64,000 nucleotides of DNA from Solimonas variicoloris DSM 15731. Lineage in GTDB: Bacteria > Pseudomonadota > Gammaproteobacteria > Nevskiales > Nevskiaceae. Below, piece after piece: positions 12,586-40,443 of this stretch. The notes below the pieces were generated by a model. That model saw only the letters and a list, made by a program, of their open reading frames with translations, did no database searches and had not been told where the DNA came from. Location of the stretch: positions 1 through 64,000 of the forward strand of contig NZ_KB907942.1 in the NCBI RefSeq assembly GCF_000382285.1, given 5' to 3'. Position 1 is the stretch's first letter, and each line of letters begins with the position of its first letter. Made by a program: the position numbers and the translations under genes.

Positions 12586-12595
12586 CCAGGCGCGC

Positions 12596-25669: not shown

Positions 25670-26470
25670 ATGAACGACACGCCGCCCGCGGCTTTCGCTC
25701 CGCCTTCCGCGGACCTCAACACACGCGCCCATACGCTCGGCCCCTCGCGCGGCGTGTTCGCGCGCCTCGGCATCGGCGCGCAGACGCGGCTCGAGAACTT
25801 CGTCGCCCGCGTCTCGCGCTTGCCGGATGCGCCGGTCTACGACCAGCGCGACTTCGCGTGGACGCGGACGCTGGAGGCGCACTGGCCGGCGATTCGCGCC
25901 GAGCTCGACCAGGTGCTGCAGATGCGCGATCAGCTGCCGGCCTTCCACCAGATCCTCGACGAGGTGCGCACCATCACCAGCGACGACCGCTGGAAAACCT
26001 ACTGGCTGCTCGCCGCCGGCGTCGACTGCCGCGAAAACCAGGCGCGCTGCCCGCAGACGACGGCGCTGCTGCGGCAGATTCCCGGCGTGCTGACGGCGTT
26101 CTTCTCGATCCTCGCACCCGGCAAGAAGATTCCGCCGCACCGCGGCGCCTACAACGGCATCCTGCGCTGCCACCTGGGCCTGATCGTGCCGGAGCCGGCC
26201 GAACGGGTCGCGATCCGCGTCGGCAACCGCATCTGCCACTGGCGCGAGGGCGAGACGCTGATCTTCGACGACAGCTTCAATCACGAAGTCTGGAACGACA
26301 CCGACGGCTGGCGCGTGGTGCTGTTCATCGATTTCGCGCGGCCGCTGCGCCAGCCCTGGCACGCGCTGAACCGCCTGTTCCTCGGCATCGCCCGCTTCCT
26401 GCCGCTGCTGCGCCGCGCCAACCGCCGTCACCGCGACTGGAAGCGCGCGTTCTACGCGCCGCGTCCGTAA
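25670..26470 (+). CDS. LpxO-like aspartyl/asparaginyl beta-hydroxylase family protein
   Basis: A 266-residue Fe(II)/2-oxoglutarate oxygenase. The core shows KIPPHRGAYNGILRCHLGL and FDDSFNHEVWN, with His residues in the positions of the iron ligands, followed by a hydrophobic/basic C-terminus that could attach it to the inner membrane. Family members include LpxO, which 2-hydroxylates lipid A acyl chains, and the location directly after a glycolipid operon supports an envelope-lipid substrate. A peptide substrate cannot be excluded. Confidence 0.8.
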   Translation: MNDTPPAAFAPPSADLNTRAHTLGPSRGVFARLGIGAQTRLENFVARVSRLPDAPVYDQRDFAWTRTLEAHWPAIRAELDQVLQMRDQLPAFHQILDEVRTITSDDRWKTYWLLAAGVDCRENQARCPQTTALLRQIPGVLTAFFSILAPGKKIPPHRGAYNGILRCHLGLIVPEPAERVAIRVGNRICHWREGETLIFDDSFNHEVWNDTDGWRVVLFIDFARPLRQPWHALNRLFLGIARFLPLLRRANRRHRDWKRAFYAPRP

Positions 26471-26489
26471 GGACGCCGCCGACGCCCGC

Positions 26490-27689
26490 TCAGCGGGCCG
26501 CGGCCGCCGCGCCGGTCGCGTGCGGCGCGTCATCGTCATCGGCCGCGCCCAGTTCGTGCACGACCGGGCGCAGCGTCAGCGCGATCAGCCGGTAGAAGTA
26601 CGACCAGTCGAAATGCTTGGCGTGCGACTGCTGGCCGTTCGCGGCGAGCCAGGCCGGAATCTCCTCGGGCCGGTCGTAGAGCGCCAGCGGAATGCCGGCC
26701 GCGGCGCTCTTCTGCGCGGCCAGATCGACGACGACGCGGACGATGAACCACGGCACGCCGTGCTCCTCGCTGGCCAGCACCGCGGCGAAATCCTCCTGGT
26801 CGACGACGAAGCGCGGCGGCGGCGGCAGGCCGAGGCGCTGCGCGGCCAGCGCCATGCGCCGCTCGATCGTGCTGCGCGCGTGATGGCTGGTGACGAACTG
26901 CGAGCCGCTCGCCGACCAGCCGTCGAGCCACAGCGCGGGCCGGTACGGCGCGACGCCGTGGAAGGCGGCGACCTCGTCGCCGATCGGCGGCAGTTCGAGT
27001 CCGGCGACGCTGCGGCCGATGCGCGCCAGCAGCGCCGGATCGGGCTGCAGCACCAGCCGCGCGACGCGGCCGGCGTCGGACAGCAGCGGCTGGCCGCGCA
27101 TCTGCCAGCTGAGGCCGGCGAAGGTCTGGCCGCCGTCGAGCGCGAAGTCGTACCAGTTGCCCTGATCGTGCTGCACGGCGGCGGCCGCGACGATCACGTC
27201 GCCAACGCGGGTCGCGCCGCCGCCGCCGGCGATGCCGACGAAGCCGAGCGCGCGCACGTTGAAGTGCTGCAGCAGCACGGTGGCGCCGATCGCGGCGTTG
27301 TCCATGTTGCCGCCGGCGACGGCGGCGATGATGTTGGCGCCGGCCCAGCGGCCGACGTGGAACTCGCGACCGACGATGCGATACACGGCGTCGATCTGCG
27401 CGTCCTCGACGATCGCCGAAATCTCCTGATAGGCCGAGGCCAGCAGCGCGATGCTCGGCGCATCCGGCAGGCGCGCCGCATCGGGCAGGCGCACCCAGCC
27501 GCGCGCCGCGTCGAGGCCCGGATTGGCGGCGCGCAGCGCGGCGACGCTGACGCCGTGGCGCAGCGCGATGCGCGCCCAGCTGTCACCGTCGGCGGCGCGG
27601 TACGCGACCGACACGCCGGCCCAGGCCGGCAGCGCCGCCGAAAGCCCGAGCAGCAGCGCCAGCAGCAGGCCGCCCGCCGCCCGCCGCAT
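26490..27689 (-). CDS. Exported LysM plus MTA/SAH-nucleosidase-like protein
   Basis: A 399-residue protein with a Sec signal peptide (PAWAGV), a LysM-like module at about 28-75 (DGDSWARIALRHGVSVAALRAANPG) and a nucleoside phosphorylase-superfamily domain. The latter has GIAGGGGATRVGDVIV and VVDQED...RVVVDLA. Compared with E. coli MTA/SAH nucleosidase, the residues equivalent to Glu12 (AYQEI), Glu174 (DQED) and Asp197 (VVVD) all appear present, so N-glycosidic bond cleavage is plausible. An exported version is unusual. It is the last gene of the amidase operon, 23 bases after amidase 5. The ATG at 27689 begins the signal peptide. Confidence 0.7.
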   Translation of the reverse strand: MRRAAGGLLLALLLGLSAALPAWAGVSVAYRAADGDSWARIALRHGVSVAALRAANPGLDAARGWVRLPDAARLPDAPSIALLASAYQEISAIVEDAQIDAVYRIVGREFHVGRWAGANIIAAVAGGNMDNAAIGATVLLQHFNVRALGFVGIAGGGGATRVGDVIVAAAAVQHDQGNWYDFALDGGQTFAGLSWQMRGQPLLSDAGRVARLVLQPDPALLARIGRSVAGLELPPIGDEVAAFHGVAPYRPALWLDGWSASGSQFVTSHHARSTIERRMALAAQRLGLPPPPRFVVDQEDFAAVLASEEHGVPWFIVRVVVDLAAQKSAAAGIPLALYDRPEEIPAWLAANGQQSHAKHFDWSYFYRLIALTLRPVVHELGAADDDDAPHATGAAAAAR

Positions 27690-27712
27690 CACCGTTCCTG
27701 GCCGGAGCGTGC

Positions 27713-29263
27713 TCACAGCGGCGGCCGCGTCCAGCCGCCGCTGCGGCCTTCGATGTAGCGCGCGACGGCCAGCGCCACATCCTCGCGCCACGGCGGCGCG
27801 ACGACCTGGATGCCGATCGGCAGCCGGCCGTCGGCCGAAGCCCCGCAGCGCACGACGACGACCGGCCAGCCGGTCGAGTTGAAGACGCCGACGTCGCTGA
27901 GCATGCCGCGATAGTCGCCGGGCACCGACGGGTCCCAGTCGATCGGCGTCGCCGGTTCGCCGGCGACCGGACACAGCAGCACGTCGTACTGCGCGAACCA
28001 GCCGAGCAGGCGCGACTTCGCCGCGTCCGACTGCTCCCAGGCTTCGACGAATTCCGAGGAGCGCAGCGGCTTGATGGCGCGGATCGACTCGTCCATCGTG
28101 CCGGACAGGTGGTGCGTGCCCCACTTCTGCGCGAGCCGCTGGTACCAGGCCCAGCCGTCGCCCATCGACAGCTTGCCGCGCATCTCATGCAGCACGGCGA
28201 GATCGGCGGTCGGGCAGTCCTGGCGCACGTCGGCCGCCACCTCGCCCAGCCAGGCGGCCGCCTGGCGGATCAGCCGCTGCGTGTCGGCGTCGACCTTCGA
28301 CAGCCCGTTCTCGGGCCAGAACACGACCTTGAGCGCGGCCAGATCGACGCCGTCCGGATCGGCCCAGGCGATCGGCACGCAGGCCGCGTCGCGAAAATCC
28401 GGGCCGCTGATCAGCGGCGCGATCAGCGCGAGATCCTTGACCCGCCGCGCCAGCGGACCGATCTGCTGCCAGGAGTCGAGCACGCCGCCGTAATCGACGA
28501 TGTGGCCGGTGCGCGGCACGCGCCCGGCCGTCGTCTTGAGACCGGCGACGCCGTTGACGTGCGCCGGCAGGCGCAGCGAGCCGCCGATGTCGGAGCCGAC
28601 GTCGAAGGCCGCGCCGCCGGCGGCGACGTTGGCGCCGGCGCCGCCCGAGGAGCCGGACACGGTGCGCGTCAGGTCATAGGGATTGTGCGTCGAGCCGTAC
28701 AGCATGTTGCTCGTGGTGTTGATCGCGCCGACGCCGCCGACCGTGAACTCCGGCGTGTTGGTCTTGCCGAGCAGGATCGCGCCCTGCGCACGCAGGCGGC
28801 GGACCACGGTCGCGTCGCGCGGCGGCACGTACTGCTGGCGGCCGTAGGTGCCGCCGGTCGAGATCACGCCCTCAGTATCGAACGAATCCTTGATCGTCAT
28901 CGGCACGCCGTGCAGCGCGCCGGCGAAGTCGCCGCGCGCGGCGCGCTGGTCGAGCGCGCGCGCTTTGGCGCGGGCGCGCTCGTAGCAGTTCATGACCACG
29001 GCGTTGAGGCGGTCGTCGATCGCGAGCTGGCGCGCGATGTAGGCGTCGACCACTTCCAGCGCCGACAGCTGGCGCGCGCGCAGCAGGTCGGCGAGCTTGC
29101 TCGCCGACATGTAGAGGATCTCGTCGGAATCGACGTCGGCGGCGACGCGGGCGACCGCCTTGGCGCTGACCCGGCTGCTCGCCGCCAGCGCCGCGGCGCT
29201 GGCCGCGCCGCGCAGGAAGACGCGTCGCGAGACACGGGCGGCCGAAGAGGAAATCGCGGGCAT
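27713..29263 (-). CDS. Tat-exported amidase-signature enzyme (amidase 5 of the cluster)
   Basis: A 516-residue amidase. The N-terminus has a twin-arginine signal (SRRVFLRG). The Ser-cisSer-Lys triad is visible: Lys in GVPMTIKDSFD, cis-Ser in GSSGGAGA and nucleophilic Ser in GSDIGGSLRLPA. The family hydrolyses carboxylic amides from very varied substrates, so specificity cannot be read from sequence. It is the most divergent of the three Tat-type paralogues and lies 14 bases after amidase 4. Confidence 0.88.
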   Translation of the reverse strand: MPAISSSAARVSRRVFLRGAASAAALAASSRVSAKAVARVAADVDSDEILYMSASKLADLLRARQLSALEVVDAYIARQLAIDDRLNAVVMNCYERARAKARALDQRAARGDFAGALHGVPMTIKDSFDTEGVISTGGTYGRQQYVPPRDATVVRRLRAQGAILLGKTNTPEFTVGGVGAINTTSNMLYGSTHNPYDLTRTVSGSSGGAGANVAAGGAAFDVGSDIGGSLRLPAHVNGVAGLKTTAGRVPRTGHIVDYGGVLDSWQQIGPLARRVKDLALIAPLISGPDFRDAACVPIAWADPDGVDLAALKVVFWPENGLSKVDADTQRLIRQAAAWLGEVAADVRQDCPTADLAVLHEMRGKLSMGDGWAWYQRLAQKWGTHHLSGTMDESIRAIKPLRSSEFVEAWEQSDAAKSRLLGWFAQYDVLLCPVAGEPATPIDWDPSVPGDYRGMLSDVGVFNSTGWPVVVVRCGASADGRLPIGIQVVAPPWREDVALAVARYIEGRSGGWTRPPL

Positions 29264-29277
29264 GGGCAAGCTCCGGT

Positions 29278-30804
29278 TCAGATCGGGGGACGGCGGTAAC
29301 CGCCGGTATAGGCTTCGATGTGGCGCAGCGCCGCGATCAGCTGGTCCTCGCGCCAGGGCCGCGCGATCAGCTGCACGCCAACCGGCAGCGCCGGCTCGCC
29401 GGCGGCGCTGCCGGCGCGCACGACACCGGCCGGCCAGCCGTTGGTGTTGTAGATGCCGAGGTAGTACGGGCTCATCCGCCGCCGCGGCGCGGGCGCGGCC
29501 GCCGGCGCCTGCTTCGCCGCCGGCGGCAGCGGCGTCGGCCGCTCGCCGATCGGCAGCGCCGCGCGCGTGCTGGCCGGGCACAGGATCAGGTCGTACTGCT
29601 CGAACCACGCCAGCTGCTCGCTGCGCACCGCGTCGAGTTCTTCGGCATAGCGCGTGAAATCGGCGCTGGGCAGCTCGTCGCCGCTGGCTGGCGGCAGGCT
29701 CGGATACGGCGTCGCGGTACCGGCGCGCTGCAGCAGGCTGCGCGTCAGATAGCCGCCGGCGGCGCCGCTGTAGGCACCGCGCAGGCCGGCCAGCTCGCCC
29801 ATCTTCGGCGGCATGTCCTCGCGCACGCGGCAGCCGGCCTCGGCCAGCGACTGCGCGCAGCGCCGCACCAGTTCCTGAATCTCGGCGCTCGGCGGGTTCT
29901 CGCCGTTCGTCGCGTAGACGGCGACGCGCAGGCCGCGCAGGTCGACGGCGTCGGCATCGCCGAGCGGCACCGGCTGCACCGCCGCGTCGCGCGCGTCGGG
30001 GCCGGCGATGATCGGCAGCAGCAGCGCCAGATCCTCGACGCGGCGCACCAGCGGGCCGATGCCCTGAAAACTGTCGTAGGCGCCGCCGTAGCCGATGATG
30101 TGACCCGTGCGCGGCACGCGGCCGTGCGTCGGCTTGAGGCCGACGACGCCGCAGGCATGCGCCGGATCGCGGATCGAGCCATAGAAGTCCGAGCCGAGAT
30201 CGAAGCTCGCGCCGCCGGCGGCGACATTGGCCGCCGAGCCGCCCGACGACGCGCCCGGCTGGTAGTCGGGATGGTAGGGATTGCGGGTGACGCCGTAGAC
30301 CAGGTTGTCGGTGCCGCGCGGACCGACACCGAGCGTGAACTCCGGCGTGTTGGTCTTGCCGAGCAGGATCGCGCCGGCGGCGCGCACGCGGGCGACGACG
30401 GTGGCGTCCTGGCCGGGGATGAAATGCGCGCGGCCGAGCGTGCCGCCGGTCGACACCAGGCCTTCCGTGTCGAACGAATCCTTGATCGTCATCGGCACGC
30501 CGTGCAGCGGCCCGAGCGGCTTGCCCCTGGCCTGCGCGGCATCGGCCTCGCGCGCTTCGTACAGCGCGCGCTCGAAGCATCGCGCGACCACCGCGTTGAG
30601 GCGCGGATGGAGCGCTTCGATGCGGGCGATGTGCAGGCGCACCGCCTCGCTCGCCGACAGCTGGCCGGCGCGGATCAGGCCGGCGAGCTTGGTCGCCGAC
30701 ATGAACAGCGGATCGTCGCTGCTGTCGCTCGACACGCGGTAGCGCGGCGCGGCGGCCGGCAGCGGCGCGGCGCCGAGCAAGGCGCGGCGGGTCGGCGCGG
30801 GCAT
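29278..30804 (-). CDS. Exported amidase-signature enzyme with altered GGS motif (amidase 4)
   Basis: A 508-residue amidase with a short, Tat-like N-terminus (PTRRALLGAA). Lys (GVPMTIKDSFD) and cis-Ser (GASSGGSAA) are present. The nucleophile segment reads GSDFYGSIRDPA: the Ser is kept but the first Gly of the usual GGS is Tyr, next to the oxyanion hole, so activity or specificity may be changed. It is very similar to amidase 3, including an identical 40-base stretch around the catalytic Lys. A Pro/Ala-rich insertion lies near residue 425. It starts 11 bases after the amidase 3 stop. Confidence 0.85.
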   Translation of the reverse strand: MPAPTRRALLGAAPLPAAAPRYRVSSDSSDDPLFMSATKLAGLIRAGQLSASEAVRLHIARIEALHPRLNAVVARCFERALYEAREADAAQARGKPLGPLHGVPMTIKDSFDTEGLVSTGGTLGRAHFIPGQDATVVARVRAAGAILLGKTNTPEFTLGVGPRGTDNLVYGVTRNPYHPDYQPGASSGGSAANVAAGGASFDLGSDFYGSIRDPAHACGVVGLKPTHGRVPRTGHIIGYGGAYDSFQGIGPLVRRVEDLALLLPIIAGPDARDAAVQPVPLGDADAVDLRGLRVAVYATNGENPPSAEIQELVRRCAQSLAEAGCRVREDMPPKMGELAGLRGAYSGAAGGYLTRSLLQRAGTATPYPSLPPASGDELPSADFTRYAEELDAVRSEQLAWFEQYDLILCPASTRAALPIGERPTPLPPAAKQAPAAAPAPRRRMSPYYLGIYNTNGWPAGVVRAGSAAGEPALPVGVQLIARPWREDQLIAALRHIEAYTGGYRRPPI

Positions 30805-30815
30805 GGATGTGGCAC

Positions 30816-32345
30816 TCAAAGCGGAGGTCTCCGGTAGCCGCCGGCGCGGCGTTCGATATGGGCCATCGCGGCGAGCACGAGCTCGTCGCGCCAGGGCTGG
30901 CCGACGACCTGAATGCCGAGCGGCAGGCCCGGATCGAGGCTCGACGTGCCGGTGCGCACGACGCCAGCCGGCCAGCCGTTGTTGTTGAATACGCCGAGAT
31001 AGGAAATGCCGGCGACGCGCGGCCCCGGCGGCGGCGGCAGGCGTTCGAGATCGATCGGCAGCGCCGCGCGCGTGCCGGCCGGACAGAGGATCAGGTCGTA
31101 GCGCTCGATCCACGCGAGCTGCTCGCTGCGGATCGCATCGAGTGCTTCGGCGGCGCGCGTCAGCTCGGCGACCGGCGCTTCCTCGCCGCCGAGGTAGAGG
31201 CCCGGCGAAGCCTGGGTCGTGCCGCTGGCCGCCAGCAGGCGCCGCATCGGATCGCTGCCGGGCGCACCGGCGTAGGCGAAGCGCGCCGCCGACAGCGCCG
31301 CCATCTTCGGCGGCATATCCTCGACCACGCGGCAGCCGAGTTCGCGGAACCAGGCCGCGGCCTGCCGCACCAGCGCCTGGTTCTCCGCCGTCGGCGCGTT
31401 GAGGCCGTTGCTCGCGAACCAGGCGACGCGCAGGCGCGACAGCTCGACCGCGGCCGGATCGCCGAGCGGCACCGGCTCGATCACCGCGTCCTGACGGTCG
31501 GGGCCGGCGATGATCGGCAGCAGCAGCGCCAGATCCTCGACGCGGCGCGCGATCGGGCCAATGCCCTGGAAACTGTCGTACGGCCCGCCGTAGCCGATGA
31601 TGTGGCCGCTGCGCGGCACGCGGCCGTGCGTCGGCTTGAGCGCCGCCAGCCCGCAGGCGTTGGCCGGTCCGCGCAGCGAGCCGCCGAAATCGGAACCGAT
31701 ATCGAAGCTCGCGCCGCCGGCGGCGACGAGCGCCGCCGCGCCGCCCGACGAGGCGCCCGGCTGATAGTCGGTGTCGTAGGGATTGCGCGTCAGGCCGTAG
31801 ACCAGATTGTCGGTGCCCTTCCAGCCGCCGCCGAGCGTGAACTCCGGCGTGTTCGACTTGCCGAGCAGGATCGCGCCGGCGGCGCGCGCGCGGGCGACGA
31901 CGGTGGCGTCGCGCTTCGGCACGAAATCGCGCCGACCGAGCGTGCCGGCGGTCGAGATCACGCCCTCGGTGTCGAACGAATCCTTGATCGTCATCGGCAC
32001 GCCGTGCAGCGGGCCGCAGCGCGCGCCGCGCGCCAGCGCCGCGTCGGCGGCCGCCGCTTCCTGCAGCGCGCGCTCGAAGCAGGTCGCGCCGAGCGCGTTG
32101 AGGCGCGGATTGACCGCTTCGAGCCGCGCGATGTGCAGACGCACGACCTCGCTCGCCGACAGCTGCCGAGCGCGGATCAGCGCCGCCAGCCGCGTCGCCG
32201 ACATGAACAGCGGATCGTCGTCGCCGGGCGCCGCCGCGGCCGGCACCGCGGCCCGCGTCGCCGCCGGCGCGGCGATGCCGGCGACGGCACCGCCGAGCAG
32301 CTGGCGGCGGCTCAGCCGCGACGGCGGCGCAGGCGGGGTCGTCAT
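30816..32345 (-). CDS. Tat-exported amidase-signature enzyme (amidase 3)
   Basis: A 509-residue amidase with a typical twin-arginine signal (LSRRQLLGG) and an Ala-rich linker. The triad is intact: Lys in GVPMTIKDSFD, cis-Ser in GASSGGAA, nucleophile in GSDFGGSLRGPA. The mature N-terminus DDPLFMSATRLAALI is nearly the same as in amidase 4, which points to tandem duplication. Its ATG overlaps the stop of amidase 2 (ATGA), so the pair is translationally coupled. Confidence 0.88.
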   Translation of the reverse strand: MTTPPAPPSRLSRRQLLGGAVAGIAAPAATRAAVPAAAAPGDDDPLFMSATRLAALIRARQLSASEVVRLHIARLEAVNPRLNALGATCFERALQEAAAADAALARGARCGPLHGVPMTIKDSFDTEGVISTAGTLGRRDFVPKRDATVVARARAAGAILLGKSNTPEFTLGGGWKGTDNLVYGLTRNPYDTDYQPGASSGGAAALVAAGGASFDIGSDFGGSLRGPANACGLAALKPTHGRVPRSGHIIGYGGPYDSFQGIGPIARRVEDLALLLPIIAGPDRQDAVIEPVPLGDPAAVELSRLRVAWFASNGLNAPTAENQALVRQAAAWFRELGCRVVEDMPPKMAALSAARFAYAGAPGSDPMRRLLAASGTTQASPGLYLGGEEAPVAELTRAAEALDAIRSEQLAWIERYDLILCPAGTRAALPIDLERLPPPPGPRVAGISYLGVFNNNGWPAGVVRTGTSSLDPGLPLGIQVVGQPWRDELVLAAMAHIERRAGGYRRPPL

Positions 32346-33919
32346 GGCGTCTCCGCGTAGTCGAAGCGCTCGCCGGGCAGCGCCGGCGTCAGCGGCGGCG
32401 CGCGGCGGCGCTGCGTGCGCGCCTCGTAGCCGCTGGCCAGCCGGATCAGCGTCGGCTCGGCGAACGGCCGGCCGATCAGCTCGATCGAGAACGGCATGCC
32501 GTCCGGCTCGAAATAGCCGCCGGGCACCAGCACCGCCGGCAGGCCGGTATACGCGTGCAGGCCGTTGCGCATCTCGCGCCGCGCCGTGCCGCCGAGGCTT
32601 TCGTCGACACCCGGCGCCGTCACCGTGCGGTACGGCAGCACCAGCGCGTCGAGGCGGTGGCGCTCCATCAGCGCGAGCAGCGCATCGCGCAGGCGCGCCT
32701 GCTCGCGCAGCGCGGCGAGAAACGGCGGGTAGCGGTCGAGCGAGCGGATCGCCGCGACTTCGCGCAGGTACGGATCGACGGCGTCGCCGCCCTTGCGCAG
32801 CATCTCGTCGAGCGAGCGCATCGGCGCGCCCGGCGGCAGGCTGCGCAGATAGGCATCGGCGGCGATGCCCTGCTCGTAGGTGGCGCTGCTGGCCGCGCCC
32901 TGCGCCTGCGGCAGATCGATGCCGCTCAGCAGCGGATCGACGAGCACCGCGCCGGCCGCGGCCATGGCCTTGAGCTCGCGCTCGAACAGCGCGCGCCCGG
33001 CGGCGTGCGCCGGACCGCCGCGCACCATCTCGCGCAGCACGCCGATGCGCGCGCCGCGCAGGCCCTGCGCATCGACGTACGACGCGTACGGCCGCTCGGG
33101 CAGACGGCCGAGACCGGCCAGCGTGCTGAGGTCATCGGGATCGAAGCCGGCGATCGCGTCGAGCACGGCGGCCGCGTCGTAGACGCTGCGCGTCATCGGC
33201 CCGGCCCGCTCCTGCACCGGCGAGTTCCACATCATGCCGCGGCGGCTGACCAGGCCGCGCGTCGGCACGATCGCGACCACGGCATTGAGCGCCGCCGGAA
33301 TCAGCAGCGAGCCGCCGGTGTCGCTGCCGAGCGCGACACTGCCGAACCAGGCGGCGGCGGCGACGCCGGAACCGGAGCTCGACGCGCCCGGATAGCGCGT
33401 GAGGTTGTACGGGCTGCGCACCGGCCCGCCGAGCGAGCTGCCGCTGCCCGACGCGCTGCCGTACCAGTCGGCGAGATTGAGCTTGGCCAGCACGATCGCG
33501 CCGGCCGCGCGCAGACGCTCGACGACGAAAGCGTCGCGCGCCGGCTGCGAAGTCGCCATCGGCGCGAAGCCGCCGGTGGTCGGCAGATCGTGGGTGTCGA
33601 AGACGTCCTTGACCACCACGACGACGCCGTGCAGCGGTCCGCGCGGGCCCTGGCGCCGACGCTCGGCGTCGAGCGCGCGCGCCTCGTCGAGCGCGCGCGG
33701 ATTGAGCGTGAGCACGGCGCCGAGCCGCGGTCCGTCGTGGTCGTAGGCGGCGATGCGCGCCTGGTACAGCTCGACCAGGCGCTCGGAGCTGAGCGCGCCG
33801 GCCGCGAACGCGGCGTCGAGATCGGCGACGGTCGCGGTCGACAGCTCGAAGTGCGCGGCCTCGGCCGGAACGAGCGCGCCGGCCAGCAGCGCGGCGCAGA
33901 GGAATCGTGGCAGGCGCAT
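32342..33919 (-). CDS. Sec-exported amidase-signature enzyme (amidase 2)
   Basis: A 525-residue amidase with a Sec signal peptide (PAEAAH). Catalytic Lys is in GVVVVVKDVFD, cis-Ser in GASSSGSG and the nucleophile in GSDTGGSLLIPA. The mature start FELSTATVADLDAAFAAG and the C-terminal LPGERFDY pattern are shared with amidase 1, so these two form a subgroup distinct from amidases 3-5. It begins five bases after the amidase 1 stop. Confidence 0.88.
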   Translation of the reverse strand: MRLPRFLCAALLAGALVPAEAAHFELSTATVADLDAAFAAGALSSERLVELYQARIAAYDHDGPRLGAVLTLNPRALDEARALDAERRRQGPRGPLHGVVVVVKDVFDTHDLPTTGGFAPMATSQPARDAFVVERLRAAGAIVLAKLNLADWYGSASGSGSSLGGPVRSPYNLTRYPGASSSGSGVAAAAWFGSVALGSDTGGSLLIPAALNAVVAIVPTRGLVSRRGMMWNSPVQERAGPMTRSVYDAAAVLDAIAGFDPDDLSTLAGLGRLPERPYASYVDAQGLRGARIGVLREMVRGGPAHAAGRALFERELKAMAAAGAVLVDPLLSGIDLPQAQGAASSATYEQGIAADAYLRSLPPGAPMRSLDEMLRKGGDAVDPYLREVAAIRSLDRYPPFLAALREQARLRDALLALMERHRLDALVLPYRTVTAPGVDESLGGTARREMRNGLHAYTGLPAVLVPGGYFEPDGMPFSIELIGRPFAEPTLIRLASGYEARTQRRRAPPLTPALPGERFDYAETP

Positions 33920-33924
33920 CGGGA

Positions 33925-35586
33925 TCAGTAGCGGAAGCGCTCGCCGGGCAGCGGCGGCGTGTGCGTCGGCAGCGGCAGCGGCGGACCGCCGTGCTCGTAG
34001 GCATCGGCCACGCCGATCAGCAGCGGCTCGCTGAAGGCCGGACCGACGAAGGAGATCGAAATCGGCAAACCGTCGCGGCTGAGGCCGGCCGGCGCGACCA
34101 GATCGGGAAAGCCGGTGATGTTGCCGATGTTGGTCAGGCCGACGCCGATCGACTTCACGCCCGGCGGTGGCGGCGGCACGCCGCGTCCGGTCAGCGGCTC
34201 GTCGGCGATGATGCGGTGCGGCGGCCGCGGCCGCGTCGGGTAGACGAGTACGTCGACGCGCTGCTGCTCGAAGACGCCGAGCACGCCGTCGGCAACCATG
34301 GCGACGCCGTGCTCGCGCGCCGAGCGGTAGGCGAGCGAACTCATGCCCTGCCCGCTCGTCACGCGCTTGGCGAGCCCTGCGTAGACGACCGGATACGGCG
34401 ACCACGTACCCTGCGGCGCGCGCAGCGCCAGGCCGCGCTCGGCCAGTTCGGCCAGCGTCTTCGGATAGCCCGGCGCGAGGCGGCCGAGGTAGGCGTCGAA
34501 ATAGACCGCCTTCTCGGTGTCGCAGACGACCTTGACGATCGCACGGCGCGTCGCCGGATCGACGACCTGCGGCGGATAGGCGACGTCGACCAGCTCGGCG
34601 CCGAGCTTGCGCAGACGCTCGAGCGCTTGCGCGAACGCGGCGTCGACGTCGGCATCGGCGCCGCTGCCTTCGCGCAGCACGCCGATGCGCAGGCCGTCGA
34701 GCGAGCGGCGGCCGAGGAAGACACGGTAGTCACGATGCGTCTTGCCGAGGCTGTCGGCGGTATCGGCGTCGCCGGGCTCGTAGCCGGTCATCGGGCCGAG
34801 CATCGCCGCCAGATCGCTGACGTGGCGCGCCATCGGTCCGGCAGCATCGTAGCTGTAGCAGGTCGGGATGATGCCGTCGCGCGACAAAAGGCCGCGCGTC
34901 GGCTTCAGGCCGTAGACGCCGCCGACCGAGGACGGACTGCGCAGCGAGCCGCCGGTGTCGGTGCCGAGCGCCAGCGGCGCCAGCCAGGCGGCGAGCGCGG
35001 CGCCGGAACCGCCGGACGAACCGAGCGGCGTGAAGTCCGGATCGTAGGGATTGCGCGTCTGGCCGTGGATCGAGCTGAAGCCGGCGCCGCCGGCGGCGAA
35101 GTCGTCGAGATTGACCTTGGCGAGAATGATCGCGCCGGCCTCGCGCAGGCGGCGGATGATCGGCGCGTCGGCCTGCGGCTGCGCGCCGGCGAGCACGAAC
35201 GAGCCGCCGGTGGTCGGCATCTCGACGGTGTCGATGTTGTCCTTGACCACGACCGGAATGCCGTGCAGCGGCCCGCGCGGGCCCTTCTGCCGGCGCTCGC
35301 GGTCGAGCGCGCGCGCCTCGTCGAGCGCGTGCGGATTGAGCGCGATCACCGCGTTGATGCGCGGCCCGGCCTGGTCGTAGGCCTGAATGCGCTGCAGATA
35401 GAGCGAGACCAGCTGCTCGGCGCTGAGCGTGCCGGCCGCGTAGGCGGCGCCGATGTCGGCGACGCTGGCGCGCGACAGCTCGACGCTGGCGGCGCCGGCG
35501 ACGGGCGCGGCGCCGAGCAGCGCCGCACCGAGCCACAGCGCAGCGCCGGCCGCGCGCGCCGCCGTGCCCGCGTTCAGAAGCGCCAT
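33925..35586 (-). CDS. Sec-exported amidase-signature enzyme (amidase 1)
   Basis: A 553-residue amidase, the first after the TonB-dependent transducer. It has a Sec signal peptide (APVAGAAS), Lys in GIPVVVKDNID, cis-Ser in GSSGGSGAA and nucleophile in GTDTGGSLRSPSS. The C-terminus LPGERFRY matches amidase 2. Its start codon lies 13 bases inside the end of the transducer gene, so the two are coupled, which ties the enzyme to whatever the receptor imports. Confidence 0.9.
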   Translation of the reverse strand: MALLNAGTAARAAGAALWLGAALLGAAPVAGAASVELSRASVADIGAAYAAGTLSAEQLVSLYLQRIQAYDQAGPRINAVIALNPHALDEARALDRERRQKGPRGPLHGIPVVVKDNIDTVEMPTTGGSFVLAGAQPQADAPIIRRLREAGAIILAKVNLDDFAAGGAGFSSIHGQTRNPYDPDFTPLGSSGGSGAALAAWLAPLALGTDTGGSLRSPSSVGGVYGLKPTRGLLSRDGIIPTCYSYDAAGPMARHVSDLAAMLGPMTGYEPGDADTADSLGKTHRDYRVFLGRRSLDGLRIGVLREGSGADADVDAAFAQALERLRKLGAELVDVAYPPQVVDPATRRAIVKVVCDTEKAVYFDAYLGRLAPGYPKTLAELAERGLALRAPQGTWSPYPVVYAGLAKRVTSGQGMSSLAYRSAREHGVAMVADGVLGVFEQQRVDVLVYPTRPRPPHRIIADEPLTGRGVPPPPPGVKSIGVGLTNIGNITGFPDLVAPAGLSRDGLPISISFVGPAFSEPLLIGVADAYEHGGPPLPLPTHTPPLPGERFRY

Positions 35587-37697
35587 TCGGCGCCGCCGTA
35601 GACGCCGCGCGGCAGCGCGCGATAGCCGTAGACCTGGTCGTAGCTGCGATCGAAGAGGTTCTCGACGCGCAGCTTCAGCGTCAGCTGATCCCAGAGCTTG
35701 TAGCTGGTGTAGACGCGCGCGACCAGATAGTCGTCGGCGCGGCCGGTGCTCTCGATGCTGTCGTAGGCCGCGTTGGCGCCCATGCCGACGGTCCACACCG
35801 GCAGGAGGTCGAGCGAGGTCGAGGCGTCGATCGAGTGTCGCGGACGGCGCGTCAGGCGCGCGTCGGTGGTGCTGTCGGTGGCGTCGAGGTAGGTGTAGCC
35901 GAGGCGCAGATTCCAGATCGAGGTCGGGCGCAGCGTCACGCCGAACTCGGCGCCCTGGGTCTCGGCCTTGGCGCGGTTGACGTACATGCCGGCGTAGGTC
36001 GTCAGATCGGTGTACTCCCAGTCGATCAGATCGCGGAAACGGTTCTGGAAGTAGGTGGCGCTGAGCGTCGCCATGCCGTCGAACAGCGACTGGTCGACAC
36101 CGACGTCCCAGCCCTTCGACTTCTCCGGCTGGATGTCCGGATTCGGCTGCTGGTTCCAGGCCGGCACGCCGTAGCGGTCCGACGAGCCCGGCGCGGCGAA
36201 GCCGGTGCCGTAGGTCGCGCGCAGCTTGGTCTTCGGCAGCACCATCCAGGCCAGGCCGGTGCGCCACGTCGTCGCGCCGCCGACGGTGTCGTAGTCGTCG
36301 CGGCGCAGGCCGGCGTTGAGCGTCAGCGTGTCGGTGATCTGATAGGTGCCGGACAGGAAGCCGGCGACGATCGTGTCGTCGCTGCTCGTCGCGTTGATGT
36401 CGTACTTGGACGATTCGTAGTTCGCGCCGGCGACCAGTTCGAGCCCGTCGAGCGCCTTCCACGCCGTCTGCCAGTCGACGATCGTGCGGCGGTTGGCGAG
36501 ATCGCTCTTGCCCCAGGAATCGGTCCAGGTGTAGTCGCGCCGGTGCAGCGCCGCCGAGACGTGCGAGGTCACGCTGTCGCTGGCGCGCCACTCGGCGTAG
36601 ACGGTGCCGAGATAGTTCGCCGAATCGACGACGCCGGGCGCGAAGTAGTAGCGCGAGCCGTTCGAGTGATACTCGCCGGACTGGCCGCGAAAGGTCGCGC
36701 CGATGTCCCAGTCCGGATCGAGCGCGTACGACAGGCGCGCCGAATAGTTCTGGCTGTCGTAGTCGTTGTTCGGATCGTGATTGTCGGTCTGGTAGTGGTT
36801 GAACGAGGCGCTGTAGCCGAGATCGCCACTGCTGCCGGTGGTCGCCAGCGAGGCCGAGAAGGTATCGAAGGAGCCGCCGGTGACCGACACGCCGCCGGCC
36901 GGCTTGGCCGAACCTTCGGCGGTGTTCATCAGGATCACGCCGCCGATCGCGGCGCTGCCGTACATCGTGCTTTGCGGGCCGCGCAGGATTTCGACGCGGT
37001 CGAAGCCGGACAGATCGGCGCCGCCGAGAAAGTTGTCGTAGGTCGCGGCGCGGTCGTTCATGCGCACGCCGTCGACGATGAACAGCGTGTGGTGCGGATA
37101 CGCGCCGCGGATGTAGACCGCCGACTGGCCGCCGACCGCGCCGGTGTTCATGACCGAGACGCCGGGCTGCGCGGCGAGCGCGCTCTTCAGATCGTCGACC
37201 TGCGCCTTCTTCATGTCGGCCAGCGAGACCACGCTGACACTGCTCGAAGTGTGGCGCGCCGACTGCGGCGTGCGCGACGCCGACACCACGATCGTGTCGA
37301 TGCCGTCGTCGAGCGCCGCGCCCTTGTCGGCCGCCGGCTCGACCGTCTTCGCCGGCGCCGCCGGAATGATGCCGACCGTCTTGTCGCCGACGGCGTGGAA
37401 CGCAAGCGGGCTGCCGTCCAGCATCGCCGCCAGCGCCTGGCTCAGCGGCATGCGGCCCTGCACCGGTTTGCTGGTCTGACCGTTGACCAGATCCGAGGGC
37501 ATCAGGATCTGCACGCCGCTCTGCTTGGACAGCGCGATCAGCGCGCTGGTCAGCGACTGCGCCGGCACGTTGACCTCGACCGGCTTGGCCAGCACGCCTT
37601 CCTGCGCCCCGGCCACGCCCACGCCCGCCACACTCAACGCCAGCACGATACCGGCCGACGAACTCATGCCCGCCGCGCCCCGCCAGAACCTACGCAT
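35574..37697 (-). CDS. TonB-dependent transducer with N-terminal STN domain
   Basis: A 707-residue outer-membrane receptor. After the signal peptide (AGAQEG) comes an STN signalling domain (about 40-115, PAQSLTSALIALSKQSGVQILMP), a TonB box-like IDTIVVSASRTP, a plug domain with VYIRGAYPHHTLFIVDGVRM and EILRGPQSTMYGSAAIGGVI, and a 22-strand barrel ending GAEWRF. The STN domain marks FecA-type transducers that signal to a FecR-like anti-sigma factor, here encoded just upstream. The plug and barrel are somewhat BtuB-like, but the ligand is unknown; the five amidases downstream suggest an amide compound. Confidence 0.92.
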   Translation of the reverse strand: MRRFWRGAAGMSSSAGIVLALSVAGVGVAGAQEGVLAKPVEVNVPAQSLTSALIALSKQSGVQILMPSDLVNGQTSKPVQGRMPLSQALAAMLDGSPLAFHAVGDKTVGIIPAAPAKTVEPAADKGAALDDGIDTIVVSASRTPQSARHTSSSVSVVSLADMKKAQVDDLKSALAAQPGVSVMNTGAVGGQSAVYIRGAYPHHTLFIVDGVRMNDRAATYDNFLGGADLSGFDRVEILRGPQSTMYGSAAIGGVILMNTAEGSAKPAGGVSVTGGSFDTFSASLATTGSSGDLGYSASFNHYQTDNHDPNNDYDSQNYSARLSYALDPDWDIGATFRGQSGEYHSNGSRYYFAPGVVDSANYLGTVYAEWRASDSVTSHVSAALHRRDYTWTDSWGKSDLANRRTIVDWQTAWKALDGLELVAGANYESSKYDINATSSDDTIVAGFLSGTYQITDTLTLNAGLRRDDYDTVGGATTWRTGLAWMVLPKTKLRATYGTGFAAPGSSDRYGVPAWNQQPNPDIQPEKSKGWDVGVDQSLFDGMATLSATYFQNRFRDLIDWEYTDLTTYAGMYVNRAKAETQGAEFGVTLRPTSIWNLRLGYTYLDATDSTTDARLTRRPRHSIDASTSLDLLPVWTVGMGANAAYDSIESTGRADDYLVARVYTSYKLWDQLTLKLRVENLFDRSYDQVYGYRALPRGVYGGAEWRF

Positions 37698-37761
37698 ATG
37701 CCCCCCGAAAATGGATGGATGCCGAATTGGTTTTCCGGTAGCTATGACGTACGAGTCCGGC

Positions 37762-37789
37762 GCGGCGGCGCTCGCCGCCGCATTTTTTT
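37762..37789 (+). terminator. Hairpin followed by T-run on the plus strand in the transducer leader
   Basis: A nine-base-pair stem (GCGGCGGCG/CGCCGCCGC, 37762-37781) is followed on the plus strand by A and seven T. No plus-strand gene ends here, so it may block antisense transcription or act as a leader hairpin in the minus-strand mRNA. Confidence 0.4.
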
Positions 37790-37822
37790 CGCGCAACGGA
37801 GCGCTATCGCTATGGCAGACAC

Positions 37823-37849
37823 AAAAAAGGCGCCGCGAGCGGCGCCTTT
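37823..37849 (-). terminator. Intrinsic terminator after the sigma/anti-sigma pair
   Basis: GGCGCCGC...GCGGCGCC stem followed on the minus strand by TTTTTT, 17 bases after the anti-sigma stop. It separates regulatory genes from the structural operon, so the transducer-amidase operon needs its own promoter, presumably read by the ECF sigma factor. Confidence 0.85.
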
Positions 37850-37866
37850 GGCAGACAAGCCCTTGT

Positions 37867-38973
37867 TCAGTCGCCGTGCGCGGCGCCGGCGCGCGCCTGG
37901 ATCACGATGCCACTGCCCTGCTGCAGCACCTCGACCGGGAACTCGCTCGGCAGTGCGCGCAGCCATTCGTCGGTCGCGGACGTCAGCAGCGTGCCCGAGA
38001 AGCGCAGCTTGCCGACGTCGCCGTGGATGAAGACCGGGCGTCGCGTGTAGCGATTGAGATCGGCGATGACAGCGCCGAGCGGCTCGTTGTTGTATTCGAG
38101 ACGGCCCTCGCGCCAGCCGAGCACCGCCTGCGGGTCGACGGCACCGACCGTCGGATCCTTCTGCCCCTCGTCCCAGCTGACCTGGCCGCCGGCCGAGACG
38201 ACGACGGCATCGCCTTCCGCCACGGCCGCGGTCTGCGCGCCGGTGCGATAGACCTTGACCACGCCTTCGGTGACGGTGACGACGACCCGGTCCGCCGCAT
38301 GGCGCACGTTGAACGCGGTGCCGACCGCGCGAATGCGGACGTCGCCGGCGGCGACGATGAACGGCCGCCGCGGATTGTGCGCGACCGAGAAGAATCCCTC
38401 GCCACTGTCCAGGCTCAGATTGCGCTGCGCCTCGTCGTAGTGCACGGTCACCAGCGAATTGGCCGCCAGCTCGACGCGCGAGCCGTCCGACAACGTCGCC
38501 GCGTGCACGGTTTCCGTGCTGGGCGCGACGACGGCATCGTCGTCGAGCAGCGACGGCTCCGACTGGTCGCGCAGCGTCCAGCCCAGGCCAAGTGCCAGCA
38601 CGCAGGCGCAAGCCGCGCCGAGCACCGCGACGCGGCGGCGGCGCACGCTCAGCGGCTCGAAGAAATCGAGGGTCGTGGCGACCAGCGTGCCACGCGCGCG
38701 GCGCAGCGCGCCGGTGCGGCGCCGCGGTGCCGCCGGCCGGGCGGCGAGCAGCTCGCCGTCGACGACCTCGTCGGCCAGACCACCGCTCAGCGTCCACAGC
38801 TCGCGCACACGTTCGTAGGCCTGCTGGTTGCGCGCGTCGGCTTCGTACCACTGCACCCAGCTGACGATCTCGGCCTCGCTCGCCGCGGCGTCGCGCAGGC
38901 GCTCCATCCACTCCGCCGCCGCCTCGAGGCGCTGCGCGTCGATCTGACTGTGCCGGCGGCCGTCAGGCTTCAT
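37867..38973 (-). CDS. FecR-like anti-sigma factor
   Basis: A 368-residue single-pass protein. The cytoplasmic N-terminus (DUF4880-like, AEWMERLRDAAASEAEIVSWVQWYEADARNQQAY broken by conserved Trp residues) binds the sigma factor; one membrane segment lies at about 120-135; the periplasmic part has a FecR domain (LSDGSRVELAANS, DVRIRAVGTAFNVR) and a C-terminal STN-like module. It relays ligand binding from the transducer's STN domain. Its ATG overlaps the sigma stop (ATGA). Confidence 0.9.
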   Translation of the reverse strand: MKPDGRRHSQIDAQRLEAAAEWMERLRDAAASEAEIVSWVQWYEADARNQQAYERVRELWTLSGGLADEVVDGELLAARPAAPRRRTGALRRARGTLVATTLDFFEPLSVRRRRVAVLGAACACVLALGLGWTLRDQSEPSLLDDDAVVAPSTETVHAATLSDGSRVELAANSLVTVHYDEAQRNLSLDSGEGFFSVAHNPRRPFIVAAGDVRIRAVGTAFNVRHAADRVVVTVTEGVVKVYRTGAQTAAVAEGDAVVVSAGGQVSWDEGQKDPTVGAVDPQAVLGWREGRLEYNNEPLGAVIADLNRYTRRPVFIHGDVGKLRFSGTLLTSATDEWLRALPSEFPVEVLQQGSGIVIQARAGAAHGD

Positions 38974-39566
38974 TGAAATATCCGTTCCTTTGCTTCTGCG
39001 CTCGTCAGGCCATCCAGCCGCAGGCGGCAGTAGGCTACGACACGGCGCAGGTATTTTCTGGTCTGGCTGTCACGCAAGCCCAGCTCCTCGCCGATTTCCT
39101 CGACGCTCTTCTCCTCGATCCGCGACAGCAGGAACGCCCGGCGATAACGCTCGGGCAGCTCCAGCAGCGCCTGCCGTACGATAGCCAGATCCTCGCGCGC
39201 CGCATACAGCCGGTCGGGGCTGAGCGTATCGGTCAGCTCGTCGAGATCGTAGACCTTCTCGATCTGCTCGCCGCGAATCCGGTGCCGCAGGCGATCCTGG
39301 GCGATGTTCACCGCGGTGCGGAACAGGTACGCGCGCAGATAGCTGACCGCGCCCGGTTCGTGCAGCTGCAGCATGCGCACGTACGCTTCCTGCGCGACCT
39401 CGCGGGCCTCGGCCTCGGTGCCGAGCCGGTGCTGCAGCATCGACACCAGAGTGCGGTTGTGGCGCTCGAACAGCTCCGCCAGTTCCGATGCGCGCGGCGG
39501 CGCGTCCGCGCGCCGCTCGTCTCCCGAGGACGGCTCCTCGAGGAGGAAAACACCGTTGATAGCCAT
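38970..39566 (-). CDS. FecI-like ECF sigma factor
   Basis: A 198-residue ECF sigma factor (FecI group). Region 2 contains AREVAQEAYVRML...YLRAYLFRTAVNIAQDRLR, and region 4 contains LPERYRRAFLLSRIEEKSVEEIGEELGLRDSQTRKYLRRVV. It should direct transcription of the transducer-amidase operon when the surface signal arrives. ATG 39566 follows GGAG; a GTG at 39578 is possible. A perfect 10-base-pair hairpin lies upstream at 39611-39633. Confidence 0.92.
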   Translation of the reverse strand: MAINGVFLLEEPSSGDERRADAPPRASELAELFERHNRTLVSMLQHRLGTEAEAREVAQEAYVRMLQLHEPGAVSYLRAYLFRTAVNIAQDRLRHRIRGEQIEKVYDLDELTDTLSPDRLYAAREDLAIVRQALLELPERYRRAFLLSRIEEKSVEEIGEELGLRDSQTRKYLRRVVAYCRLRLDGLTSAEAKERIFQ

Positions 39567-39610
39567 GGACTCCAGCACTGAGGATGAGGCCCCGATCTGG
39601 ATAAGACGTC

Positions 39611-39633
39611 CGAGCGCCGCTTTGCGGCGCTCG
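39611..39633 (-). promoter_or_regulatory. Perfect hairpin in the upstream region of the ECF sigma gene
   Basis: CGAGCGCCGC and GCGGCGCTCG pair perfectly around a three-base loop, 44 bases before the sigma start codon. There is no T-run on either side, so an operator or leader structure is more likely than a terminator. No clear Fur box was found nearby. Confidence 0.4.
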
Positions 39634-39804
39634 CCAACGCAAATCAGCGGAGCGATTGCACTGGCGAATCCATAGTCAAGAATCGTGCCTTGCGCCGCGC
39701 GCGGGCCTGCGCCGCGGCCACGCGATCCACGGCGCCGGCGGCGCGGACTGCGCGCCGGTCGCGCGCGCTTCGGGGCCTCGGCCGACGCCGCGCGACGCGC
39801 CGGC

Positions 39805-40443
39805 TCAGCCCGGGCAGCGCACCGCGGCGCGATCGCGCTGCGCGGCCTCGACCACGCCGGCGATGTCGGCGGCGAGCCGGGCCAGGCCGGCCTGGGCGCC
39901 GTTGACCAGCGCGTCGTAGCCGGCGCCGACCGGCGCCGTCACCTGTGTCGAGCAGGTCCAGCGCGCCTTCAGCGTGCCGGGGGCGCTGACGTCGAGCACG
40001 GTCCAGACCGCGTCGAGGCGCACGCTGGTGGCGAGCCGGGCGTCGAGACGCTGCACGTCGACGAGCACGCGATAGACCGGCGCGCCCGGCGGCGGCGCGA
40101 CCCGCGAGACGTCCTGCGCCCCGAGCGCGGCGCCGAGCTCGGCGACCAGCGCGCCGCGCACCTCGTCGGGCAGCGGCGCGATCCAGCGCCGCGTCTCGAC
40201 CAGCGCGACCTCGCCGTTGCCCTGGCGCACGACCAGCTCCGGCTGATTGACCTGCGCCGGCACCCGCACCGGCTGCACGTCGATCGCGAATGCCGCCTGG
40301 CCGGCGGCGAGCGGCGCCAGCGGCGTCGGCCGCACCAGCGTGTAGAAACGCGTCGGCGCCTCGCCGCCGCAGGCCGTCACCGCAAGCGTGGCGAGCGCGA
40401 ACGCGCCGAGTCCCCGCAGATTCCGCTGCTGTGCGCTGCGCAT
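39805..40443 (-). CDS. pqiC: PqiC-type ABC-transport auxiliary lipoprotein
   Basis: A 212-residue outer-membrane lipoprotein with lipobox VTAC and the family pattern RFYTLV...IDVQPVRVPAQVNQPELVVR, then RWIAPLPDEVRGAL. PqiC forms the outer-membrane end of the Pqi lipid-transport tunnel. Its ATG overlaps the pqiB stop (TGATG), so it completes the pqiA-pqiB-pqiC operon. Confidence 0.88.
   Translation of the reverse strand: MRSAQQRNLRGLGAFALATLAVTACGGEAPTRFYTLVRPTPLAPLAAGQAAFAIDVQPVRVPAQVNQPELVVRQGNGEVALVETRRWIAPLPDEVRGALVAELGAALGAQDVSRVAPPPGAPVYRVLVDVQRLDARLATSVRLDAVWTVLDVSAPGTLKARWTCSTQVTAPVGAGYDALVNGAQAGLARLAADIAGVVEAAQRDRAAVRCPG

What the first reader, a model, noticed from the sequence alone, without database searches (positions are those of the whole stretch)
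26490..39566. Surface-signalling operon: FecIR, TonB transducer, five exported amidases and an exported nucleosidase
Nine adjacent minus-strand genes make one system. An ECF sigma factor and FecR-like anti-sigma factor (overlapping by four bases) are followed by a terminator, then a TonB-dependent transducer with an STN domain, five paralogous amidase-signature enzymes and a LysM-nucleosidase. Spacings in the structural part are -13, +5, -4, +11, +14 and +23 bases. All six enzymes carry export signals, so the product of outer-membrane uptake would be hydrolysed in the periplasm. Known FecIRA systems import iron chelates without such enzymes. The combination suggests a scavenging or detoxifying system for an amide-containing, perhaps nucleoside-linked molecule (for example a peptidyl-nucleoside antibiotic, or an N-acyl signal, since some amidase-signature enzymes cleave acyl-homoserine lactones). 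The ligand is inference.
Basis: partly seen in the sequence, partly recalled or inferred. Interest (0 to 1): 0.85.

Follow-up and report, generated by a model that had tools for sequence, protein, structure and literature searches.

The report
Sensor-linked operon of exported amide-cleaving enzymes
A Solimonas bacterium carries a block of nine genes that looks built to sense a molecule outside the cell, pull it through the outer membrane and cut its amide bonds in the periplasm; similar enzyme blocks occur in unrelated bacteria, but what they feed on is not known.

Summary
Nine minus-strand genes at 39566-26490 (a Solimonas species) encode an ECF sigma factor, FecR, a TonB-dependent receptor with an STN domain, five amidase-signature enzymes with intact Ser/Ser/Lys residues, and a LysM-nucleosidase; spacings are as stated. 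The block sits where three of six other Solimonas genomes examined have its two flanking genes side by side, occurs in 2 of 11 genus genomes, and is under purifying selection. One amidase (A4) has only a weak export signal. An A3-type/A5-type pair recurs, often with asparaginases or formamidase, and in 15 of 33 array loci beside a TonB receptor or SusC/D. Four other gammaproteobacterial loci repeat FecI-FecR-STN receptor-amidases, with non-orthologous receptors. Best explanation: an uptake and periplasmic amide-hydrolysis locus under cell-surface signalling, an analogue of polysaccharide utilisation loci. Substrate unknown. The 'nucleoside-linked' part rests on a gene with no close homologue outside two sister species. 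Lasso-peptide isopeptidase clusters already pair FecIR and a TonB receptor with a hydrolase, so this is a variant, not categorically new.

The parts
38970..39566 (-). ECF sigma factor, FecI-like, 198 aa (P0001)
   Evidence: Sigma70_r2 and r4_2 over cut-off; identical protein in G038
37867..38973 (-). FecR-like anti-sigma regulator, 368 aa (P0002)
   Evidence: FecR 71.5 bits, DUF4880 30.3 bits; hydrophobic segment VAVLGAACACVLALGLGW read by eye
37826..37849 (-). terminator-like hairpin between fecR and the receptor gene
   Evidence: 10-pair stem then T run (5 sites found against 3.8 expected); seen in sequence
35574..37697 (-). TonB-dependent receptor with N-terminal STN domain, 707 aa (P0003)
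   Evidence: STN, Plug, TonB_dep_Rec over cut-off; best NCBIfam models are B12-receptor models but far below cut-off; best PDB sequence BtuB
33925..35586 (-). amidase A1, Sec-type signal (by eye), 553 aa (P0004), group a1
   Evidence: PF01425 329 bits; best PDB sequences are peptide amidases 5ac3/1m21; tree group
32342..33919 (-). amidase A2, Sec-type signal (by eye), 525 aa (P0005), group a2
   Evidence: PF01425 250 bits; tree group
30816..32345 (-). amidase A3, Tat-type signal (SRRQLLGG, by eye), 509 aa (P0006), group b3
   Evidence: PF01425 295 bits; tree group
29278..30804 (-). amidase A4, sister of A3, uncertain export signal, 508 aa (P0007), group b3
   Evidence: PF01425 315 bits; sister of A3, support 0.99
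27713..29263 (-). amidase A5, Tat-type signal (SRRVFLRG, by eye), 516 aa (P0008), group g5
   Evidence: PF01425 297 bits; tree group
26490..27689 (-). exported LysM + PNP/MTAN-family nucleosidase, 399 aa (P0009)
   Evidence: PNP_UDP_1 61 bits, LysM 23 bits; E89, E299, R318 invariant and D322 aligned with the MTAN Asp in a 3-sequence alignment (catalytic roles recalled)
26471..39804 (.). block absent between the same two neighbours (gene 25670-26470 and pqiC-like 39805-40446) in G041, G045, G040

Best explanation
A substrate-induced uptake and degradation locus for an amide-rich molecule too large for porins. The receptor binds it outside; its STN domain signals through FecR, freeing the sigma factor, which raises transcription of the receptor-enzyme operon. 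TonB-driven import delivers the molecule to the periplasm, where Sec- and Tat-exported amidases of four distinct types (a1, a2, b3, g5) cut different amide bonds or strip amide nitrogen, giving ammonia and acids for growth; in this lineage a LysM-anchored nucleosidase may act on one component or product. It is the amide analogue of a polysaccharide utilisation locus: a conserved enzyme core coupled to interchangeable transporters and sensors. Shown: gene content, domains, conserved catalytic residues, recurrence of the enzyme core, linkage to TonB receptors. Inferred: signalling, import, export, activity, nutritional purpose. Unknown: the substrate.
For: Domains and order. Block at a junction intact in three other Solimonas, receptor and nucleosidase in 2 of 11 genus genomes, purifying selection. 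Four amidase groups shared across two (a1, a2) or three (b3, g5) phyla; 25 of 27 arrays in the tree set have both b3 and g5; b3 directly followed by g5 in 23 of 27 versus a mean of 8.8 (maximum 15) in 2000 within-locus label shuffles. Exported-type N-termini in 126 of 153 checkable array amidases versus 15 of 153 shuffled (own heuristic). TonB receptor or SusC/D beside the array in 15 of 33 array loci; asparaginase-family genes in 19 of 33 versus 0 of 41 other loci; FmdA in 13 of 33 versus 2 of 41 (Pfam on examples). FecI-FecR-STN receptor-second receptor-amidases in L119-L122.
Against: No inner-membrane importer lies in the operon, so what crosses further is unknown. The window's receptor, FecR and sigma are not close to those of L119, L121 and L122 (receptor similarity limited to the STN/plug part, FecR 23-26%, sigma 31-32%), so the ligand may differ. 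The locus is rare: in the order only the sister genome shares the nucleosidase (2 of 85), and 0 of 369 sampled class genomes hit the Cellvibrio-type receptor (two candidates scored per genome, no positive control). 17 of 33 array loci show no receptor in the stretch held. Export-like N-termini are also common in amidases outside arrays (18 of 25 checkable). Tandem arrays could serve general amide-nitrogen release without a specific imported ligand. Loci are not independent (seven are Cyclobacterium-like).
Confidence: 0.5

Rival explanations
1. Detoxification: the operon senses an amide-containing antibiotic or toxin that enters through the receptor and destroys it in the periplasm.
For: Inducible regulation and periplasmic hydrolases fit. 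RND-type efflux genes lie in 10 of 33 array loci. The nucleosidase could attack a nucleoside antibiotic (inference).
Against: Deliberate TonB import of a toxin to destroy it seems uneconomical; sister arrays carry asparaginase and formamidase genes, which fit nitrogen release. No efflux gene among the nine window genes.
Confidence: 0.13
2. Xenosiderophore or metallophore use: the receptor imports a chelate and the amidases break its amide bonds to release the metal.
For: FecIRA-type regulation classically serves iron carriers (PMC9249621: start of abstract and one passage seen). The two receptors of L122 hit siderophore and heme receptor models weakly.
Against: No reductase, ABC or iron-storage gene among the nine; five amidases, and asparaginase or formamidase companions in sister arrays, exceed what a chelate needs (inference).
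Confidence: 0.13
3. Broad periplasmic amide-nitrogen scavenging: the amidases act on whatever small amides diffuse in; the receptor and FecIR are only loosely linked.
For: 17 of 33 array loci have no receptor in the stretch held. Asparaginase and formamidase companions suggest small amides.
Against: Receptor and A1 genes overlap by 13 bases; receptor or SusC/D adjacency in 15 of 33 loci in three phyla.
Confidence: 0.17
4. Corrinoid deamidation: a BtuB-like receptor brings in cobamides whose several carboxamides and nucleotide loop are cut by the amidases and nucleosidase.
For: Best named relatives of the receptor are BtuB/TonB-B12. Corrinoids carry several amides and a nucleoside (recalled).
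Against: TIGR01779 score 242.4 against a cut-off of 599.7. No Rfam hit in the window; the only cobalamin riboswitch found in the genome is elsewhere. Five TonB-type receptors beside other arrays score 37.5 bits or less, or nothing, with the B12 model.
Confidence: 0.03

Closest known systems
FecIRA-type cell-surface signalling
   Same: ECF sigma + FecR + STN receptor, in that order
   Different: downstream genes are exported amidases, not iron-carrier transport genes
Lasso-peptide isopeptidase clusters (astexin, sphingopyxin, benenodin, rubrinodin)
   Same: sigma/anti-sigma pair and TonB receptor linked to a dedicated amide-bond hydrolase (PMC9266682, passages read)
   Different: the hydrolase there is prolyl-oligopeptidase-like and acts on a peptide made by the same cluster; here five amidase-signature enzymes, and no isopeptidase-type hit among the nine proteins
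Polysaccharide utilisation loci (SusC/D; described from recall)
   Same: TonB-linked import plus a battery of exported hydrolases; in the Cyclobacterium-like arrays the importer is SusC/D
   Different: amide hydrolases; no carbohydrate-active enzyme among the nine
Peptide amidase (PDB 5ac3, 1m21)
   Same: best-matching solved sequences for A1
   Different: here one of a tandem set of amidases behind a receptor gene
MTA/SAH nucleosidase
   Same: sequence family and aligned catalytic residues
   Different: exported, LysM-bearing, 24-27% identical to the two compared homologues, below the cut-off of each of the five NCBIfam models hit

Membership tests
FecIRA-type cell-surface signalling system | ECF sigma factor next to FecR-type regulator | tested here: met
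   4-base overlap
FecIRA-type cell-surface signalling system | TonB-dependent receptor with N-terminal STN domain nearby | tested here: met
   STN 38.4 bits against 28.4
FecIRA-type cell-surface signalling system | ligand-dependent induction through FecR | not testable with these tools
   needs a reporter assay
Amidase-signature family | PF01425 over cut-off and Ser-cisSer-Lys triad | tested here: met
   five of five (triad identity recalled)
Polysaccharide utilisation locus | carbohydrate-active enzymes in the locus | tested here: not met
   none among the nine proteins
Lasso-peptide isopeptidase cluster | prolyl-oligopeptidase-like isopeptidase in the cluster | tested here: not met
   no such Pfam hit among nine proteins
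Lasso-peptide isopeptidase cluster | precursor peptide gene | not tested
   short precursor ORFs were not searched for
BtuB vitamin B12 receptor | TIGR01779 above curated cut-off | tested here: not met
   242.4 against 599.7
BtuB vitamin B12 receptor | cobalamin riboswitch upstream (common, not universal; recalled) | tested here: not met
   no Rfam hit in the window; the genome's single hit is on contig C1
MTA/SAH nucleosidase | NCBIfam equivalog cut-off | tested here: not met
   69.7 against 169 for the best model
Exported enzyme set | Sec or Tat signal on every enzyme | tested here: inconclusive
   clear by eye for A1, A2, A3, A5 and nucleosidase; A4 weak

The most novel reading that the evidence does not exclude
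The window shows one member of an undescribed class of 'amide utilisation loci': a conserved core of a b3/g5 pair of exported amidases plus accessory amidases, asparaginases and formamidase, spread between Gammaproteobacteria, Verrucomicrobia and Bacteroidetes and coupled independently to different TonB receptors, SusC/D pairs and FecIR sensors, which degrades a common amide-rich natural polymer or oligomer and so opens a TonB-dependent route into dissolved amide nitrogen.
Probability: 0.4. Interest if true: 0.8.

Novelty: new variant of a known kind. Interest (0 to 1): 0.62.

Why it matters
TonB-linked loci are known for iron carriers, vitamins, glycans and peptides (recalled). A recurrent version devoted to amide hydrolysis would suggest how some environmental bacteria reach amide-bound nitrogen in large molecules, supply a defined set of exported amidases with possibly matched specificities for amide and urethane chemistry, and give a FecIR sensor whose ligand could be found by induction screens. 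The enzyme core is concrete enough to test in laboratory E. coli.

Tried and rejected
Housekeeping or chance: rejected (selection; recurrence). Plasmid or viral origin: no support; the nucleosidase has no match in 72,556 plasmid records and the viral-contig scan gave no relative; plasmid matches of A5 and of the receptor are all below 60% identity, best listed 39.1% and 32.0%. Corrinoid reading: tested with Rfam, a whole-genome riboswitch search and NCBIfam, not supported. First signal-peptide script failed because the domain envelope already held the N-terminus; it was replaced, whose 'TAT' label for A4 matches sequence upstream of the gene, so that one of its 126 is known to be false and others may be. 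Gene calling merged some adjacent amidases in G+C-rich loci; amidase counts come from the HMM pass. Receptor and nucleosidase searches of the class scored only 2-5 candidates per genome, so absences there are soft. One search also gave one partial hit outside the order (G375, 31% over 100 residues, an ordinary MTAN-like protein), and one search gave other weak partial matches. Rows dropped: the tree used 154 domains of at least 330 aa from 35 loci, leaving out five Cyclobacterium loci (L064, L065, L067, L068, L072), L045, the four loci replaced by L119-L122 and most single-amidase loci; one search dropped L045 and the same four, and counted L085 (three amidases far apart) with the 41 other loci. 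Group a1 was taken at a node of support 0.69 and b3 at one of 0.31. For the 20 array genomes without FecR beside the array I compared coordinates by eye only, since contigs there are unnamed (4 of the 24 had no FecR match). Literature: eight searches on the subject listed at most 20 papers each, of up to 181 that held the terms; none of the listed titles and abstract starts describes such arrays. Subscription journals and preprints were not held.
Full report
What is there. The minus strand from 39566 to 26490 holds nine genes: ECF sigma factor (198 aa), FecR (368), TonB-dependent receptor (707), amidases A1 (553), A2 (525), A3 (509), A4 (508), A5 (516) and a LysM-nucleosidase (399). Third-position G+C and reading frames support them. 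Between fecR and the receptor gene lies a terminator-like hairpin (37849-37826), so sigma/FecR and the receptor-enzyme part may be two transcripts (inference). The amidases keep Lys, Ser and Ser in all five. Among solved structures A1 is nearest to bacterial peptide amidase and A5 to urethanases, GatA and related amidohydrolases; A2-A4 were not searched there. The nucleosidase is a remote MTAN relative with the aligned catalytic residues kept. A4's export signal is doubtful; the others look clear by eye.

The host and the block. A contig scan names the sister genome: L045 is Solimonas flava DSM 18980, whose contig has the length of the G038 contig that carries the operon, so the window is a Solimonas. 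Receptor and nucleosidase occur in 2 of 11 genomes of the genus and the nucleosidase in 2 of 85 of the order. Of six other Solimonas genomes whose pqiC side I fetched, three (G041, G045, G040) have the two flanking genes as direct neighbours; in G037 pqiC adjoins the next gene of the row; in G039 and G042 the far side is not conserved. In G041 9 bp separate the two stops. The 13-kb block therefore probably came or went as a unit. Comparison with S. flava gives dN/dS of 0 (sigma), 0.12 (FecR), 0.10 (receptor), 0.32 (A1), 0.13, 0.15, 0.17, 0.09 (A5) and 0.11 (nucleosidase): all nine look kept as working genes.

Relatives. The sample is thus the nearest relatives of A5, not a census. By an amidase HMM, 34 of 74 hold three or more amidase genes, 4 hold two and 36 hold one; some loci end at contig ends. 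Arrays occur in Solimonas, Nevskia, Hydrocarboniphaga, Cellvibrio-like and other gammaproteobacterial genomes, Opitutaceae and other Verrucomicrobia, and Cyclobacterium and a Flammeovirgaceae genome (Bacteroidetes). A FastTree of 154 domains from 35 loci gives groups a1 (A1) and a2 (A2), each in Gammaproteobacteria and Verrucomicrobia, and b3 (A3, A4) and g5 (A5), each also in Bacteroidetes; many inner nodes have support of 0.97-1.0, but the nodes used are weak for b3 (0.31) and a1 (0.69). A3 and A4 are sisters (0.99). Of 27 loci with at least three tree members, 25 have both b3 and g5, and b3 is directly followed by g5 in 23, against a mean of 8.8 and a maximum of 15 in 2000 within-locus shuffles.

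Company kept. In 33 array loci (28, the window and four extended stretches) I found a TonB receptor or SusC in 16, beside the array in 15; FecI and FecR in 5; asparaginase-family genes in 19; FmdA/AmdA in 13; RND pump genes in 10; ExbB in 2. In the 41 other loci: receptor 2, asparaginase 0, FmdA 2, FecI 2, ExbB 1. Pfam on examples confirms asparaginase, FmdA_AmdA, SusC/D and receptor. The array amidases carry Tat- or Sec-like N-termini in 126 of 153 checkable cases (25 of 178 were cut or unanchored); shuffled N-termini give 15 of 153; amidases from the other loci give 18 of 25 checkable, so export is not special to arrays (own heuristic).

The same regulatory layout elsewhere. A FecR search of 24 array genomes placed FecR just upstream of the array in four: those of L052, L105, L048 and L056 (two unnamed gammaproteobacteria, a Thalassocella and a Cellvibrio genome from metagenomes). 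Fetched (L119-L122), they read FecI, FecR, STN receptor, second receptor, one or two a-type amidases, A3-type, A5-type, with one more amidase at the end of L122. Pfam confirms sigma, FecR and Plug in all four; STN is over its cut-off in L121 and L122 and just under it in L119 and L120 (26.8 and 28.1 against 28.4). Their receptors are related over most of their length to receptors beside three verrucomicrobial arrays (28-33% identity), but to the window's receptor only in the STN/plug part; sigma is 31-32% and FecR 23-26% identical to the window's (L119, L121, L122). So the enzyme core is shared while sensor and transporter were apparently coupled to it more than once (inference).

How it most likely works. 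Ligand binding at the receptor, STN-FecR contact, release of the sigma factor, more receptor and enzymes, import, and stepwise amide cutting in the periplasm. Only gene content and homology are shown; every dynamic step is inferred from the FecIRA paradigm. The substrate is not identified. Companion asparaginases and formamidase in sister arrays argue for release of amide nitrogen. In one Cyclobacterium array the SusD partner matches SusD-like_2 and a 'SusD and RagB' Pfam family, a faint hint at peptides (RagB as a peptide binder is recalled). The nucleosidase is a local addition, so I do not infer a nucleoside-linked ligand.

Known or new. FecIR with a TonB receptor and a dedicated amide-bond hydrolase is known from lasso-peptide isopeptidase clusters (PMC9266682, passages read). 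The logic of polysaccharide utilisation loci is known. Exported amidase-signature arrays coupled to TonB uptake were not seen in the rows listed by eight searches of the held library. I rate it a new variant of a known kind.

Noticed in passing
L049 1834-4061, also L047, L050, L051, L055, L069, L070, L071, L073, L087: Two different asparaginase genes with signal-like N-termini lie in tandem near b3/g5 amidase pairs in Gammaproteobacteria and Verrucomicrobia.
   Followed up: partly
L050 2976-4781 and relatives in L049, L051, L055, L069: A membrane-type protein of about 600 aa without any Pfam hit recurs near amidase arrays (5 of 33 loci).
   Followed up: no
L047 990-3223, L070 2196-3947: ExbB/ExbD/TonB-like genes (named by eye) lie near the receptor-amidase array, as if the locus brings its own TonB motor; a TonB-like and a TPR-like gene also precede FecI in L119 (by eye).
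   Followed up: no
L027 (own genome, contig C16), 396-4344: Another amidase gene is followed at once by a TonB-dependent receptor gene without an obvious STN domain (by eye).
   Followed up: no
search of the order with PF01425: Amidase gene counts are uneven: 70 of 85 genomes have 1-9 matches, 15 have 10-18, with up to 40 first-look candidates in one (at most 17 candidates were scored per genome).
   Followed up: no
L014 1414-2250: A signal-peptide-bearing MTAN-family homologue in the order has Asn where MTAN has its catalytic Asp.
   Followed up: no
window 12577-12670 and 15734-15806: ARAGORN calls a tRNA-Arg and an odd tRNA here; both may be false positives, as they overlap or abut likely coding sequence, and the Rfam scan reported nothing.
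   Followed up: no
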